Below are positions 3,120 through 35,761 of a DNA stretch of 64,000 nucleotides, in pieces. The DNA lies in assembly GCA_029263125.1 (NCBI GenBank), contig JAJCYD010000048.1, positions 186,001 to 250,000 on the forward strand. The letters run 5' to 3'. Every line of letters begins with the position of its first letter. The stretch's first letter is position 1. The translations under genes and the position numbers were made by a program. The notes below the pieces were generated by a model. The model had not been told where the DNA came from, did not search any database, and saw only the letters and a program-made list of their open reading frames with translations. Source of the stretch: Solirubrobacteraceae bacterium (GTDB lineage Bacteria > Actinomycetota > Thermoleophilia > Solirubrobacterales > Solirubrobacteraceae).

Positions 3120-5255
3120 TCAGGCGGCGTCCGTCGCGGGCTGCTCGGGTCCTTCGATCGACAGTCGCGGCAGCCGCCGCGCGATGCCGGCCGGCATCCA
3201 CCAGCTCGCCTTGCCGAACATGAACATCAGCGAGGGCACGAGGATCAGGCGGATGACGAACGCGTCGAAGAGCACGGCGCTCGCGAGACCCAGGCCGAAC
3301 AACTTGATGATGCGGTCGTCTCCGAGGATGAACGAGCCGAAGACGCTGATCATGATGATCGCCGCCGCCATGACGACCTTGCCGGTCAGCGCGAGGCCGT
3401 TGCGCACGGCGAGCGTCGCGTCCTTGGTGTGCTCCCATTCCTCATGCATGCGGGTGACGAGGAAGACCTCGTAGTCCATCGAGAGCCCGAACACGATCGC
3501 GAACATGAAGACCGGCAGGAACGCCTCGATCGGACCGGTCGTCCCGACGCCCAGCAGTGAGGCGAAGTGCCCCTCCTGGAAGACGAACGTGATCACGCCA
3601 AGCGCCGCGCCGATGCTCAGCACGTTCATGAACGCCGCCTTGATCGGGATCACGAGCGAGCGGAACACGACGGCCAGCAGCAGCAGCGACAGTCCGACGA
3701 CGACGGCGATGAACAGCGGCAGCTTGTCGGCGAGCACCTTCGACAGGTCCGCGGTCGTCGCGGTCGCGCCGCCGATCGACGCGGTGATGCCGGTCGCCTG
3801 CTCGACCGGCGGCACGACGCTGTCGCGCAGCGTGGCGAGCAGATTGGTCGTCGCGGCGGCCTGCGGCTTGCTGGTGGGGAACACCGTCAGCGTCGCCGTG
3901 TCCTTGGCGGGGTTCAGTGCGGGCTGACCGACGCTCGCGACACCGTCGGTGCCGGCGATGGCCGTCGACAGCGCGTTCAGCCCCGAGCCGTCGCCGGTGC
4001 GCGGCAGCTCGCTGACCACCAGCAGCGGTCCGTTGAAGCCCGGGCCAAAGCCCTCGGAGAGCTGGTCGTAGGCGATTCGTGTCGTGCTGCCGGGCGCATC
4101 GTTGCCCGAGTCGCTGGTGCCGAGCTGCATCCCGAAGACCGGGAACGCGACGACGGCGAGCACCGCGACCGTCGCGATCGCGAACGTCCGCGGGCGGCGC
4201 TCGAGGATGCCGGCCCAGCGGGCGAAGCCGCGAGGCTTTTCGCCCTCGGGCTTGACCTTGCCGAGCTTGACCTTGTGCCCGAAGGTTCCCAGCAGGGCGG
4301 GCAGCAGCGTGAGCGAGCCGATCATCGTGAAGAACACCGCGAGCGCCGAAGCGATCGCAGGCCCGTTGAGAAACGAGATGCCGAGCAACAGCATGCCCAG
4401 CAGCGCGATCACGACGGTCGTGCCGGCGAACAGCACCGACCGGCCGGCCGTGTTCAGCGAGGTGATCGTCGACGCGCGGATGTCTTCCCCGCGACGGCGC
4501 TCGTTGCGGAAGCGGTTGAGGATCAGCAGCGCGTAGTCGATGCCGACGCCGAGCGCGATCATCACGGCGAGCGTCGGGGCGAAGCTCGCGATGTCAAAGA
4601 CCGACGAGGCGGCCAGCACCACCGTCATGGCGGCGCCCAGCGACGCGAAGGTGACGATCAGCGGCATCGTCATCGCCGCGACAGAGCCGAGCACGACGAT
4701 CAGCACGACGATCGCGACGAGCACGCCGATCGCCTCGGTCGCCGACTGCGCGGGCTGCTCGGCGACCTTGATCGCCTGCCCGCCGAGGTTGACCTGCAGG
4801 TTGTCGTTGGCCGCGCTCTGCGACACGTTGACGACGCGCTCGATGTCGGTCTTCTCAAGATCGCTGGCCTGCTTGTCAAAGGCGATCGTGGCGAAGCCGA
4901 TCGTGGCGTCCTCGCTGATCTGGCCCGGGCCGCCGTAGGGGTCCTGCACGCCGGTGACGCTCGGCAGCGTGCGCAGCGTGCCGACGAGCTCCTGGACCTC
5001 GGCCTTGCGGGCCGGGTCGGTGAGCTTGCCGTCATGGGCCTTGAAGACGACCTGGCTGGAGTCGCCGGCCTGCTGTGGGAACTTCGTCTGCAGCAGGTCG
5101 ACCGCCTTCTGGGATTCGCTGCCGGGCAGCGAGAAGTTGTCGACGAAGCCCCCGCCGGAGGCCACGGCGAGGCCGCCGAACCCGACGATCACCGCGACCC
5201 AGAGGGCGATGACGATGCGACTGCGGTCGTAGCACCACTGCGCGATGCGTTTCAT
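3120..5255 (-). CDS. MMPL-family RND transporter
   Basis: Large inner-membrane exporter of the MmpL/RND superfamily, 711 aa, driven by proton motive force and usually moving lipids or hydrophobic compounds. It has the twofold RND layout: one TM, a large extracytoplasmic loop, a TM block, then the same again. The conserved Asp-Tyr pairs sit in ALGVGIDYALLILNRFR and FGLSMDYEVFLVTRM, matching the proton-relay positions of MmpL proteins. The chosen start gives MKRIAQWCYDRSR; the open frame upstream runs into the regulatory region of the divergent TetR gene and is not credible as protein. It heads a leftward run with the YbhN-like and MFS genes. Regulation by the neighbouring TetR is inferred from the palindromes between them. 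Confidence 0.93.
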   Translation of the reverse strand: MKRIAQWCYDRSRIVIALWVAVIVGFGGLAVASGGGFVDNFSLPGSESQKAVDLLQTKFPQQAGDSSQVVFKAHDGKLTDPARKAEVQELVGTLRTLPSVTGVQDPYGGPGQISEDATIGFATIAFDKQASDLEKTDIERVVNVSQSAANDNLQVNLGGQAIKVAEQPAQSATEAIGVLVAIVVLIVVLGSVAAMTMPLIVTFASLGAAMTVVLAASSVFDIASFAPTLAVMIALGVGIDYALLILNRFRNERRRGEDIRASTITSLNTAGRSVLFAGTTVVIALLGMLLLGISFLNGPAIASALAVFFTMIGSLTLLPALLGTFGHKVKLGKVKPEGEKPRGFARWAGILERRPRTFAIATVAVLAVVAFPVFGMQLGTSDSGNDAPGSTTRIAYDQLSEGFGPGFNGPLLVVSELPRTGDGSGLNALSTAIAGTDGVASVGQPALNPAKDTATLTVFPTSKPQAAATTNLLATLRDSVVPPVEQATGITASIGGATATTADLSKVLADKLPLFIAVVVGLSLLLLAVVFRSLVIPIKAAFMNVLSIGAALGVITFVFQEGHFASLLGVGTTGPIEAFLPVFMFAIVFGLSMDYEVFLVTRMHEEWEHTKDATLAVRNGLALTGKVVMAAAIIMISVFGSFILGDDRIIKLFGLGLASAVLFDAFVIRLILVPSLMFMFGKASWWMPAGIARRLPRLSIEGPEQPATDAA

Positions 5256-16943: not shown

Positions 16944-18191
16944 TCAGCCCGAGCGCCCGGTCATCGAGCGCGGCCCGCTGCGACCGGTCTGCTCGGCTTC
17001 GAAGCGCTGCAGCAGATCGCGCACCGGCTTGCAGGACTCCTCGTCATCGCAGGAGATGGTCGCGGCGGCGGGCTGCAGCAGGCGCCATTCGTCCTCGTCG
17101 ATCGGGTCGGCATCGCCGACGCGCAGCAGGGGGCCGATCTCCAGCTCGCGCAACAGCTGGTAGCCGCCGGTGACCGGCTGCTCGGACGCGCCGAGGGACA
17201 ACACGATGTCGTCCAGGAACGCCTCGTGATCGTCGGGCGGCCCGAACTCCAAGCGCTGATGCAGGCCGGGGCGGCCACGCCCGAAGCGCACCCACTGCGC
17301 GGGAAGCGGCTGCCCGCGATAGCTGAAGACCTCGAGGTTCGGCGCGCGGATGTACACGCCGAGCGGATCGGCGAACGCGACCTGCCCGCCGCGGTAGACG
17401 GCGTCGTAGACGCCGAGCGAGATCGTCGGGTCGGCGTGGTTGCACGCGAGGTGGGCCACGTTGAAGGCGCTGAAGACGTCGTCGCCGCTCGCCTGGCGAC
17501 GCTCGTCGCGATCGAGCACGGCGTAGGGATGCGCGCCGAAGATCGCGACGTAGATCAGGTCGTCGATGCCGTTGATCGGATGCGTCATGAACAGCGCTCG
17601 CTCCATGTTCAGGCGGCCGGTCGGCTGTGCCGGGACGCCGGCGATGCGCAGTCGGCGGTCGTTGCCGTGGCCGGCGACGGTGTGGCCGAAGGCGACCTCG
17701 CGCTCCTCTGCGCTGAGCGCATGCGGATCGGCGACGCCGTAGAGCTCCCTCCAGGCGGGCTCGGCTCCGAGCACCTGCGTCGCCATCGCGCGCACGCCGT
17801 CGGGGTCGTGCATCGCCACGCATGCCCAGTACTCGCGAAACTCCGTCGTGACCTCGACGCGCTTGGGGCGCAGGGCACCGGTCTGATCGCGACGATTGAT
17901 CACCATGTACTCGCAGTACTCCAGCTGCACCGCGCGCCGCCCCGCCAGGCCCCAGTCCGACAGCGCCCGCGCATTGGCTTCACCGACGCAGAACGCCGGC
18001 TTGCCGGGATCGCCGGGCCACGTGATCGCGTCAGTAGCGCGCGAACGCGCCAGGGCATCGGGGTCCAGCGAGAAGAAGCGCGACTTCAGCGCGTCGTTCT
18101 GCGAGTCGTAGGCCCGCGCGATCGTCTCGTTCCAGCGGCCGCGCAGCTCCTCGGAGAGCTCGTCAGCGTGGCCGGGGGCGTCGTATCGCAT
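16944..18191 (-). CDS. Conserved-looking protein of unknown function (415 aa)
   Basis: I do not recognise a characterised family. The protein is soluble, with no signal peptide or TM segment, and codon quality is good throughout. Blocks that look constrained are QLEYCEYMVINRRD near residues 88-101, RVEVTTEFREYWACVAMHDP near 111-130, HLACNHADPTISLGVYDAV near 250-268 and FADPLGVYIRAPNLE just after. Cys, His, Glu and Asp cluster in these, suggesting a metal site or catalytic centre. The C-terminal ~60 residues include SCDDEESCKPV and a polar tail that looks unstructured. I have a loose memory of uncharacterised bacterial and fungal proteins with similar EYCE and EYW blocks, but cannot verify it. 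It lies next to the Clp-N/HTH pair on the same strand, 15 nt after it. Confidence 0.8.
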   Translation of the reverse strand: MRYDAPGHADELSEELRGRWNETIARAYDSQNDALKSRFFSLDPDALARSRATDAITWPGDPGKPAFCVGEANARALSDWGLAGRRAVQLEYCEYMVINRRDQTGALRPKRVEVTTEFREYWACVAMHDPDGVRAMATQVLGAEPAWRELYGVADPHALSAEEREVAFGHTVAGHGNDRRLRIAGVPAQPTGRLNMERALFMTHPINGIDDLIYVAIFGAHPYAVLDRDERRQASGDDVFSAFNVAHLACNHADPTISLGVYDAVYRGGQVAFADPLGVYIRAPNLEVFSYRGQPLPAQWVRFGRGRPGLHQRLEFGPPDDHEAFLDDIVLSLGASEQPVTGGYQLLRELEIGPLLRVGDADPIDEDEWRLLQPAAATISCDDEESCKPVRDLLQRFEAEQTGRSGPRSMTGRSG

Positions 18192-18206: not shown

Positions 18207-18689
18207 TCAGCGGCGAGTGGCCATCTCGACCTGCACAAGCGCGGCCAGGCGCCACGGCTCGACATCCAGCCGCGCGAGCACGCGCCCCAGCCCGGCCGCC
18301 GGCGGATCGAGCAGCCCCAGCAGCAGATGCTCGGTGCCAAGGCGTCGCTGGCCGCGCGCGACGGCTTCACGCAGCGCCTGCTGGAGCGCGTGCTTTATCG
18401 CGAGGCTGAAGCCCGGATCGTCGGCGCGGGGCACAGCGGGGGTCGACTCGACGACCGACGCCGGAACCCCGACCGCCTCCAGCGTCGCGACGAGGTCGCG
18501 TTCGATGGCCGTCGCGATCTCACCGGCATCCAGGCCCGCCTCGGCGATCGCCCGGCCAGCACGATGAGACGGCTCGGCGAGCGCGAGCAACAGGTGCTCG
18601 GGCTCGACCTGCTCAGCTCCGAGCCGGCGTGCGACGTCCAGGGCACGTGTCACGGCATTGCGACTCTCCCACGCGAAGCGCTCAAACAT
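18207..18689 (-). CDS. Stand-alone Clp N-terminal (Clp R) domain protein
   Basis: 160-aa protein that is essentially one Clp R domain, the substrate/adaptor-binding N-terminal domain of ClpA/ClpC. The two half-repeats are visible: FERFAWESRNAVTRALDVAR plus QVEPEHLLLALAEP, and FSLAIKHALQQALREA plus LGTEHLLLGLLDPP. No AAA+ module is present, so it is not an unfoldase; it may act as a decoy, adaptor or sensor. Its start lies 8 nt inside the upstream HTH gene, so the two are translationally coupled. Confidence 0.88.
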   Translation of the reverse strand: MFERFAWESRNAVTRALDVARRLGAEQVEPEHLLLALAEPSHRAGRAIAEAGLDAGEIATAIERDLVATLEAVGVPASVVESTPAVPRADDPGFSLAIKHALQQALREAVARGQRRLGTEHLLLGLLDPPAAGLGRVLARLDVEPWRLAALVQVEMATRR

Positions 18690-18927
18690 CTCGTCTCCCG
18701 CTGCGCACGCCGCGCGCCTTCAGGCGCTTGGCGTGCTTCTTGTGGACGGCCTGGCGGCTCACACCGAGCGAAGCCGCGATCTCCGACCACGACCAGCCGT
18801 CGACGATCGCCCGCTCGACCTGCCCCGCCTCGAGCCGGTCTGCGAGCCGGCGCAGCGCGACGACGGCTGCCAGCCCCTCGGCGGGATCGCGCGGCACCGC
18901 CTCTTCCTCGGTTGGTACGAATGCCAT
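18682..18927 (-). CDS. Small helix-turn-helix protein coupled to the Clp-N protein
   Basis: 81-aa protein with a sigma-factor-region-4/MerR-like helix-turn-helix at about residues 45-70 (WSWSEIAASLGVSRQAVHKK), followed by a basic tail. An acidic N-terminus and an amphipathic helix (LAAVVALRRLADRLEAGQVE) precede it. It overlaps the Clp-N gene by 8 nt. A good promoter lies so close to the ATG that the mRNA may be leaderless, and palindromes there suggest autoregulation. Function unknown. Confidence 0.85.
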   Translation of the reverse strand: MAFVPTEEEAVPRDPAEGLAAVVALRRLADRLEAGQVERAIVDGWSWSEIAASLGVSRQAVHKKHAKRLKARGVRSGRRDV

Positions 18928-18930
18928 GAC

Positions 18931-18965
18931 GTCAACGCTAGTTGACGACCACGTGCGTTGTCAAC
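18931..18965 (-). promoter_or_regulatory. Promoter with palindromic operator for the HTH/Clp-N pair, possibly leaderless
   Basis: On the minus strand a TTGACA -35 box (18964-18959) and a TAGCGT -10 box (18940-18935) are spaced 18 nt. Transcription would begin within a base or two of the ATG at 18927, leaving no leader. GTTGAC/GTCAAC half-sites recur at 18931-18936, 18941-18946 and 18960-18965; the first two form a perfect GTCAAC-GCTA-GTTGAC palindrome over the -10 box. This fits autorepression by the HTH protein (inference). Confidence 0.6.
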
Positions 18966-19005
18966 TCTGGTTGCGCAGCGACTCAGGCCCAGCGCACGAT
19001 CGCCA

Positions 19006-19176
19006 ATCGACCTGCCCCAGAAGTTCCTGGCCTGGGAAGACTCTGACGGCCAGGTGCGCCTGGCCTACAACGACCCGGAGTACCTCGCCGAGCGCCACGT
19101 CCTGGAGGGCTAGGACCAGCGCCTGACGATGATCGCCAAGGCGCTCGCCGATCTGGCCAGCGCCGCGACATCCTAA
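19006..19176 (+). pseudogene. DUF302-family remnant, truncated and stop-interrupted
   Basis: The plus-strand frame from 19006 reads IDLPQKFLAWEDSDGQ, then LAYNDPEYLAERHVLEG, the C-terminal half of a DUF302 (TT1751-like) protein. It is stopped by TAG at 19111-19113, then continues in frame with LTMIAKALADLASAATS to the TAA at 19176. Just upstream, AQRTIA in another frame suggests a further frameshift. The N-terminal half is gone. It overlaps the 3' end of the FGGY kinase gene by 4 nt. Confidence 0.7.
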
Positions 19177-33849: not shown

Positions 33850-34494
33850 TCACCGCGCCGTCGCGGACGCGGTGCCGGCGCGTGCGTGTCGAGCGACAAC
33901 GACGGTGGTCGCCACCGCCAACAGGACGGCGATCGGGAGCCAGGGCACATCAGCTCCGCCGCCAGCCGCCGGACCGGCGCTCCAACGCGGGAACGGATCG
34001 TTGACGATCGGAATGATGAGATCGGCCCGCGTGGGGGTGTGACCTGCAACGTACCGGTAGCCCGCCAGCCCGATCGCGATCGAGGCGATCCCGCCCCCGG
34101 GTACCGTCATCGTGGCCAGATAGCGGCCCGACCGATAACCACGCAGACCGGCTGACCGGCGAGCCCAGACGATCTGCCGAGCGCCACCATCCGCGCCGCG
34201 CACTCGGAGGTAGATACCGGACGCGCCGAAGGGCTCCCCAGCGGCGTCGGGGACCCCGAGCCTCGGCGCGGAACGCAGCGTCCACGCGACCGTGAGCCGC
34301 TCGCCGGCGCGAGCACCGGCCAAGTGCTCGGGATGTTCCAACGTCGCGCGAACGGCCCCCTTGCCATGAGCTGGCCACGCCGTGGCCAGGGCGCACGCCG
34401 TCGCGGCGATCAACAGCGGTCCCGCGCGGCGTGGAAGGCGCACACCGATGATACGTCCGAGCCATCGACGAGGGTCCGGGCCCGCCGAGGCCAC
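33850..34494 (-). CDS. Hypothetical exported protein with C-terminal membrane anchor
   Basis: 214 aa. An N-terminal hydrophobic segment (AGPLLIAATACALATAWPA) looks like a signal peptide after a basic lead. The middle is beta-rich (TVAWTLRSAPRLG, GASGIYLRVRGADG, GYRSGRYLATMTVPGGG), resembling an Ig-like or YtkA-like fold. One TM segment near the end (WLPIAVLLAVATTVVVARHA) is followed by a short basic tail. It begins 4 nt after sufD on the same strand, though nothing links it to Fe-S assembly. GTG start. No family named. Confidence 0.65.
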   Translation of the reverse strand: MASAGPDPRRWLGRIIGVRLPRRAGPLLIAATACALATAWPAHGKGAVRATLEHPEHLAGARAGERLTVAWTLRSAPRLGVPDAAGEPFGASGIYLRVRGADGGARQIVWARRSAGLRGYRSGRYLATMTVPGGGIASIAIGLAGYRYVAGHTPTRADLIIPIVNDPFPRWSAGPAAGGGADVPWLPIAVLLAVATTVVVARHARAGTASATAR

Positions 34495-34498
34495 ACCG

Positions 34499-35761
34499 TC
34501 AGCCGAGCACGAGCTCCAGTCGCCGTTGCAACGCGCCCGCGACCGCTTCGCGAACGAAGCCGGGCTTGAAGCGCTCCACCGTCGCCTCGAGAAAGCCCTC
34601 GATGACCAGGCGCTTGGCCTGCTCGGGCAGCAGGCCGCGAGAGCGCAGGTAGAAGAGCTGCTCGAGATCGATCTGGGCGATCGCCGCGGCGTGCGTGCAG
34701 CGCACGTCGTTGGCGAGGATCTCCAGGCCCGGGACGGAGTCCGCGTGCGCGGTCTTCGTCAACAGCAGGTTGCGCGACTCCTGGAAGGCGTCGATCTGCT
34801 GGGCGCCCGGCTCGACCTTGATCATGCCCGACCACACGGTGTTCGAGCGGCCGTCGAGGATCCCGCGAAAGGCGAGGTCCGACGTCGTGTTCGGCGCGTC
34901 GTGGACCTGTGTCGTCGCGTAGTCCAGGTGCTGGCGATTGTGCGTCGCGTAGGCGCCGGTGACCTTGGCGTCGGCGCCGGGGCCGATGAGCTTGGTGTCC
35001 ATCGCGACGCGGCCGTGCCCGGAGCCGAAGCCCAGGGCGATCCAGTCCAGCGCGCCGTCACGGTCGACCGTCGCGCGCTGCGCGCCGAAGATCCACGACT
35101 TCTCGCTGAGATCCTGCGCGCAGACGTAGCGCAGCCGGGCGTTCTGGCCGACCGACAGCTCGACGACGGTGTTCAGCAGGCCATCGGTGTCGTCGTCGGC
35201 GCAGACGTACTGCTCCCAGACCTCGGCCGACGCGCCCTCCTCGAGCACGACGAGCGTGCGCCACTGCAGCGCCGTCTGGCCCTGAGCCTGCACGACCGAG
35301 ATGACGATCGGGGACTCGACGGCGACGCCACGCGGGACGTAGACGAACGCGCCGCCCTCCCAGCCCGCCTCGTTGCGCGCGACGAAGGGGTTCTCGGCGT
35401 CGACGATCGTGCCGAAGTGCGCCTCGACGAGCTCGGGATGGCGCTGCACCGCGAGGCTCAGCGGCATGACGATCGTGCCGTCGGCGGCGGGCTCGCCAGC
35501 GGGCTCCTCGAAGGCATGGTCGATCTGCTCCATGTGCGTCGCGCCCTCGGGCGACTGCACGACGGCCAGCGACGGCACGTCGATGTGCGCGCCGATGCGC
35601 TCGGGCTTCTCGAAGGCGTCGAGGTCGAGCTTCTTCAGCGACGTGAACTCCCAGCCCGGCTGGCCGCGAAACGACGGCAGCGGAAGGGTGTCCGACAAGG
35701 CAACGGCGCGCTCGCGGCGCGCCGTCAGCCATGCAGGCTCGATCAGGGTCCGGCTAGCCAA
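34499..35761 (-). CDS. sufD: Fe-S cluster assembly scaffold protein SufD
   Basis: 420-aa subunit of the SufBCD scaffold in the cytoplasm. The right-handed beta-helix core and the C-terminal SufBD signature are present: [20 protein letters not shown] and [37 protein letters not shown] is the conserved mid-protein block. The start is a TTG at 35761, overlapping sufB by 8 nt; no better start is visible. sufC, sufS and sufU are not in this window. Confidence 0.93.

What the first reader, a model, noticed from the sequence alone, without database searches (positions are those of the whole stretch)
18207..18965. Minimal HTH plus stand-alone Clp-N operon with a leaderless, palindrome-covered promoter
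A DNA-binding protein of 81 aa is coupled to a bare Clp R domain without any ATPase. The promoter places the start of transcription at the ATG, and three GTCAAC/GTTGAC half-sites overlap it. A Clp-N domain alone could bind arginine-marked or adaptor-bound clients and report proteolytic load to the HTH protein. I know of no described system of this form.
Basis: partly seen in the sequence, partly recalled or inferred. Interest (0 to 1): 0.6.

Follow-up and report, generated by a model that had tools for sequence, protein, structure and literature searches.

The report
Two-gene relative of ClpC2 self-repressor
Two small overlapping genes, one for a DNA-binding protein and one for the substrate-receptor domain of a protein-degrading machine without its motor, sit behind a switch almost identical to that of the mycobacterial antibiotic sensor ClpC2; the arrangement is common across actinobacteria and seems to be an unstudied two-protein version of that sensor.

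Summary
An 81-aa HTH gene (18682-18927, -) overlaps a 160-aa stand-alone Clp-N gene (18207-18689, -). The promoter carries two palindromes: GTCAAC-N4-GTTGAC (18931-18946) over the -10, and a degenerate copy (18960-18975) over the -35. The ATG is where transcription should start. The perfect palindrome occurs once in the 3.75-Mb genome. Of 109 distinct HTH+Clp-N loci across Actinomycetota, 106 have the N4 palindrome (controls 4/122), nearly always ending 2-3 bp before the start codon with a second copy 27-29 bp upstream.

"No described system" is wrong. Fused HTH-ClpN ClpC2 of mycobacteria represses itself through CGTCAAC-N5-GTTGACG operators at a leaderless promoter and is derepressed by cyclomarin A (Taylor 2023). 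The window pair belongs to a sister group: two genes, N4 operator, uncharacterised in the papers I could search. Best explanation: the HTH protein represses its own operon, and the Clp-N protein senses and soaks up ClpC-receptor ligands.

Side results: the ClpC2 crystal fragment stops just before the HTH recognition helix, so the HTH, not the Clp-N patch proposed in print, is probably the DNA reader. RelS-RelI-like toxin-antitoxin modules have the same operator layout without any Clp-N.

The parts
18682..18927 (-). HTH protein, 81 aa; putative autorepressor: long helix (dimerisation helix by analogy with ClpC2 NTD and RelI) followed by helix-turn-helix
   Evidence: ORF; start supported by identity from Met1 (about 83-87%) in three congeners; model with helices 15-42, 47-54, 58-71; profile match to ClpC2 N-terminal region 97.4%, E 1.4e-11
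18207..18689 (-). stand-alone Clp-N (two Clp_N repeats), 160 aa, no AAA+ module; putative ligand sensor/sponge; overlaps the HTH gene by 8 bp
   Evidence: PF02861 E 1.2e-16; PDB matches to ClpC1 NTD and ClpC2 CTD; pLDDT 94, Foldseek best hit ClpC1 NTD
18931..18946 (.). operator 2: perfect palindrome GTCAAC-N4-GTTGAC over the -10, ending 3 bp before the ATG
   Evidence: only perfect copy in the 3.75-Mb genome; N4 palindrome in 106 of 109 split loci versus 4 of 122 control windows
18960..18975 (.). operator 1: degenerate palindrome (10/12) whose right half contains the -35 TTGACA; 29 bp from operator 2
   Evidence: perfect in a family member (L020); two palindromes 27-29 bp apart in nearly all split loci that have two
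18959..18964 (-). -35 box TTGACA
   Evidence: sequence; position conserved across loci
18935..18940 (-). -10 box TAGCGT (TANNNT type), 7 nt before the ATG: leaderless start inferred
   Evidence: sequence; TAnnnT kept at this place in most relatives

Best explanation
The locus is a self-repressing two-gene operon, a split relative of ClpC2. (1) The 81-aa protein dimerises through its long helix and its HTH reads the two GTCAAC-N4-GTTGAC palindromes lying over the -35 and -10 of its own leaderless promoter, keeping the operon off. Sequence and comparative evidence for this step are strong; binding itself is inferred. (2) The Clp-N protein, made 1:1 by overlapping translation, is a motor-less copy of the ClpC substrate receptor and associates with the HTH protein. 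This is inferred from adjacency, gene overlap and independent HTH-ClpN fusions. (3) When Clp-N binds a ligand of the ClpC receptor (a ClpC-targeting peptide antibiotic, or perhaps unfolded or marked protein), the HTH lets go of DNA. The operon is induced, and the extra Clp-N soaks up the ligand and protects ClpC. This is inferred by analogy with ClpC2.
For: Operator: the perfect N4 palindrome occurs once in the genome, at this promoter; in 13 relatives most perfect copies lie at the same pair; 106/109 split loci versus 4/122 controls. Geometry: two palindromes 27-29 bp apart, last one ending 2-3 bp before the start codon. Pairing: 116 of 136 HTH-bearing ORFs have Clp-N directly downstream. Independent fusion: Thermoleophilia HTH-ClpN fusions fall inside the split HTH clade (99/83), ClpC2 in a separate one (100/93) (few columns). 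Homology to ClpC2 NTD. Precedent: ClpC2 represses itself through palindromes of the same kind at a leaderless promoter and is derepressed by cyclomarin A. HTH as DNA reader: RelI-type HTHs without Clp-N have the same two-palindrome, leaderless layout at several loci.
Against: No binding, expression or interaction data exist for any split pair in the papers found. Ligand-site residues are only partly kept: F2 and F80 equivalents present, E89 is Gln in the window; across the family 66, 65 and 74 of 109. Taylor et al. place DNA contacts on the Clp-N domain (R185/R189, EMSA); the R185 equivalent is Arg in 57 of 109 and the R189 equivalent in 46 of 109, with Ala in the window. HTH-Clp-N contact is not shown.
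Confidence: 0.66

Rival explanations
1. The HTH protein autorepresses as above, but the Clp-N protein is not part of the switch: it is only the effector (a sponge, holdase or competitor for ClpC clients and adaptors), and the inducing signal reaches the HTH directly or through its own turnover by ClpCP.
For: The HTH is complete on its own, and RelI-type HTHs without Clp-N have the same operators. Excess ClpC2 slows casein degradation by ClpC1P (PMC10030653).
Against: Separate fusions of this HTH to Clp-N and tight gene overlap suggest physical cooperation; in ClpC2, ligand binding to the Clp-N half alters DNA binding.
Confidence: 0.2
2. Both proteins are needed to bind DNA: as proposed for the ClpC2 C-terminal domain, Clp-N contributes the main DNA contacts and the HTH protein is mainly a dimerisation scaffold.
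For: The ClpC2 R185A/R189A mutant binds operator DNA less well (PMC10030653).
Against: HTH recognition-helix residues are nearly invariant in the family while the two Arg positions are not. The ClpC2 NTD crystal stops at residue 72, before the invariant K74-F81 stretch. In ClpC2 the NTD mutant R57A derepressed more (4.6-fold) than the Arg mutant (2.0-fold). RelI-type HTHs have like operators with no Clp-N.
Confidence: 0.08
3. The pair is a toxin-antitoxin-like module in which the HTH protein is the antitoxin and Clp-N the effector.
For: Related HTHs (RelI) are antitoxins with the same promoter layout (PMC13284704).
Against: The partner is a conserved Clp-N receptor fold, not an RNase; strong clpC2 induction after cyclomarin is protective rather than toxic.
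Confidence: 0.04

Closest known systems
ClpC2 (Rv2667 and M. smegmatis homologue), fused N-terminal domain + Clp-N autorepressor (Taylor et al. 2023, PMC10030653)
   Same: Homologous HTH region (hhalign 97.4%) and Clp-N domain; palindromes with the same half-sites overlapping -35 and -10; second palindrome 2-3 bp before the start codon; leaderless; two copies 28-29 bp apart
   Different: Two separate genes; palindrome spacer 4 bp instead of 5; HTH falls in a sister clade; ligand and induction unknown; window Clp-N has Gln at the E89 position
RelS-RelI toxin-antitoxin (Rv2663-Rv2664; PMC13284704)
   Same: RelI carries a related HTH after a long dimerisation helix; RelSI-like modules in this genome and others show the two-palindrome leaderless layout
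   Different: The partner is an RNase toxin encoded upstream; half-sites are GACAAG/CTTGTC-like; no Clp-N
ClpC1/ClpC N-terminal domain
   Same: Clp-N fold, two repeats, part of the cyclomarin-site residues
   Different: No AAA+ rings and no ClpP partner; not a protease subunit by itself

Membership tests
Clp_N domain (PF02861) | score above the curated cut-off | tested here: met
   61 bits against a cut-off of 20.7
Clp/Hsp100 ATPase (ClpC) | AAA+ modules after the N-domain | tested here: not met
   ORF ends after 160 aa; only Clp_N found
ClpC2 | HTH/dimerisation region and Clp-N in one polypeptide | tested here: not met
   two overlapping genes, likewise in three congeners
ClpC2 | N-terminal region homologous to ClpC2 NTD | tested here: met
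   hhalign 97.4%, E 1.4e-11
ClpC2 | CGTCAAC-N5-GTTGACG operator next to the start codon | tested here: not met
   same half-sites but N4; N5 in the ClpC2-type fused loci fetched
ClpC2 | two operators over -35/-10 at a leaderless promoter | tested here: met
   by sequence only; transcript not mapped
ClpC2 | cyclomarin-site residues (ClpC1 F2, F80, E89) | tested here: inconclusive
   F, F, Q in the window; partly conserved in the family
ClpC2 | autorepression relieved by cyclomarin A | not testable with these tools
   needs bench work
RelS-RelI toxin-antitoxin | RelS-type toxin gene beside the HTH gene | tested here: not met
   the partner gene is Clp-N

The most novel reading that the evidence does not exclude
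A phylum-wide class of two-protein sensors in which a free ClpC-type receptor domain hands ligand binding over to a separate small HTH repressor. In this whole family (split pairs, fused ClpC2, RelI-type antitoxins) the HTH is the DNA reader of one shared operator format, overturning the published placement of ClpC2's DNA-binding site on its Clp-N domain.
Probability: 0.45. Interest if true: 0.7.

Novelty: new variant of a known kind. Interest (0 to 1): 0.52.

Why it matters
It extends the ClpC2 self-regulating sponge, known from mycobacteria as a defence against a ClpC1-targeting antibiotic, to a widespread two-gene form in Streptomyces, Nocardia, Actinomadura, Solirubrobacterales and others, including the genus (Streptomyces) known to make such peptides. 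It separates the DNA reader from the ligand sensor on two polypeptides, which makes the signal path easy to test. It also points to a likely error in the current ClpC2 model and to an operator for RelSI-type toxin-antitoxin modules, where the Mtb study found no inverted repeats.

Tried and rejected
Palindrome GTTGAC-N12-GTCAAC in the window: nothing beyond chance, wrong spacing. Generic sigma-70 and terminator scan: no call. PADLOC: no hit, so no known anti-phage defence label. ClpC3 as the split Clp-N partner: considered because PDB 8b9o is a bare Clp-N, but 8b9o is the C-terminal domain of M. smegmatis ClpC2; ClpC3's identity was not settled. HTH as a sigma or anti-sigma factor: Pfam sigma-region-4 hits are weak and generic. 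Foldseek of the HTH model gave no match at E <= 0.001; VIA-align shows only general HTH folds at Z 5-6, and ClpC2 NTD (8ada) and RelI (9sdc) were not among the rows shown; that absence is not evidence. Paper searches for the split pair found nothing.

Full report
WHAT IS THERE. On the minus strand an 81-aa HTH gene (18682-18927) overlaps a 160-aa gene for a bare Clp-N (18207-18689) by 8 bp. Clp_N is unambiguous and no AAA+ module follows. Its AlphaFold model (pLDDT 94) matches ClpC1 N-domains. The HTH protein is modelled as a long helix (15-42) followed by an HTH (47-54, 58-71). Its residues from about 30 to 73 align with sigma region 4, NarL-type and Lrp-type DNA-binding domains, at modest Z.

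THE PROMOTER. They are better read as two palindromes with a 4-bp spacer: 18931-18946 (perfect, over the -10) and 18960-18975 (10/12, its right half being the -35). The perfect form occurs once in the 3.75-Mb genome, here; the reversed control occurs nowhere. In 13 relatives searched for exact copies, most lie at the same pair.

CONSERVATION. A search of 61 genomes gave 14 with a match, most of the strong ones with Clp-N directly downstream. A phylum sample gave 119 of 396 genomes with an HTH match, and a named genome collection over 541 matching stretches, of which 80 loci were kept. Of 136 HTH-bearing ORFs in the fetched loci (some loci are repeats), 116 have a separate Clp-N gene next door and 9 are fused to Clp-N. 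Among 109 distinct split loci 106 have the N4 palindrome at 10/12 or better, against 4 of 122 control windows. In 108 loci the last palindrome typically ends 2-3 bp before the start codon and the second lies 27-29 bp upstream. The control windows were taken about 1.2 kb upstream, so they do not control for promoter composition, but near-exact 12-letter matches at fixed spacing are not explained by composition.

WHAT IT IS LIKE. ClpC2 of mycobacteria is a self-repressor with a Clp-N domain; its operator is CGTCAAC-n5-GTTGACG, often doubled over -35 and -10 at an inferred leaderless promoter, and cyclomarin A relieves repression (PMC10030653). The fused loci fetched here reproduce this: N5 palindromes at 12/12, 28-29 bp apart, 2-3 bp before the ATG where the start could be placed. 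The split loci that carry the operator have N4 throughout. The HTH profiles match (97.4%, E 1.4e-11). In an HTH tree (77 columns only, bootstrap not fully settled) split pairs plus Thermoleophilia fusions form one side, ClpC2 plus RelI-type the other (99/88), and the Thermoleophilia fusions nest among split pairs (99/83). HTH and Clp-N thus seem to have been joined more than once, which argues that they work together.

WHICH PART READS DNA. The ClpC2 paper assigns DNA contacts to the Clp-N domain. Its N-terminal crystal covers residues 4-72 (8ada matches L154 over 7-72). The HTH recognition helix predicted from the family is residues 73-81, with K74-F81 invariant in seven fused proteins. In the split family the HTH is a separate protein and its recognition residues are nearly invariant, whereas the proposed Arg positions are not (57 and 46 of 109). 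The paper's own NTD mutant R57A derepressed more than the Arg double mutant. A 2026 paper already notes HTH similarity between RelI and ClpC2. I therefore think the HTH is the DNA reader; this is inference, not proof, and the Arg patch could add affinity.

RELATED MODULES. Two RelS-RelI-like pairs in the same genome and several elsewhere show the same two-palindrome layout ending 3 bp before the toxin start (L183, L208, L184, L030; partial in others). The RelSI paper reports no inverted repeats upstream of the Mtb operon; I did not examine Mtb itself.

MECHANISM. Repression by HTH binding over -35/-10 is well supported by sequence. That Clp-N is the sensor, and that ligand binding releases the HTH, is inferred from ClpC2. 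The natural ligand is unknown. Phospho-arginine pocket residues (positions recalled from B. subtilis ClpC, own knowledge) are only partly conserved, and the cyclomarin site is partly kept. A ClpC-type ATPase ORF with an N-domain is present elsewhere in the genome (891-aa frame on C4), so a protectee probably exists.

NOVELTY. New variant of a known kind: the split form, its N4 operator and its phylum-wide spread were not found in the papers I could search, but the principle is ClpC2's.

Noticed in passing
L183 (G000:C33 around 4115-4674) and L208/L167 (G000:C19 around 33979-34529): Two RelS-RelI-like toxin-antitoxin pairs whose promoters carry GACAAC-N4-GTTGAC and, 27 bp on, GACAAG-N4-(C/G)TTGTC ending 3 bp before the toxin start; similar sites precede related pairs (L184, L030, L196).
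   Followed up: partly
G000:C52:83402-84085 (L005, L026): The same genome also carries a fused HTH-ClpN-ClpN protein (270-aa frame) behind degenerate palindromes, a paralogue of the window pair.
   Followed up: partly
18998-19115 (+): Remnant of a DUF302 protein C-terminus (E 1e-4, just under the cut-off) directly upstream of the promoter, apparently a decayed gene.
   Followed up: partly
16944-18191 (-): 415-aa ORF directly downstream of the pair with no convincing Pfam or NCBIfam match.
   Followed up: no
split loci of Nonomuraea, Nocardia, Leifsonia and others (e.g. L040, L041, L046): Half-sites drift to AGCAAC/GTTGCT while keeping the N4 spacer, so recognition-helix and operator co-variation could be tested.
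   Followed up: no
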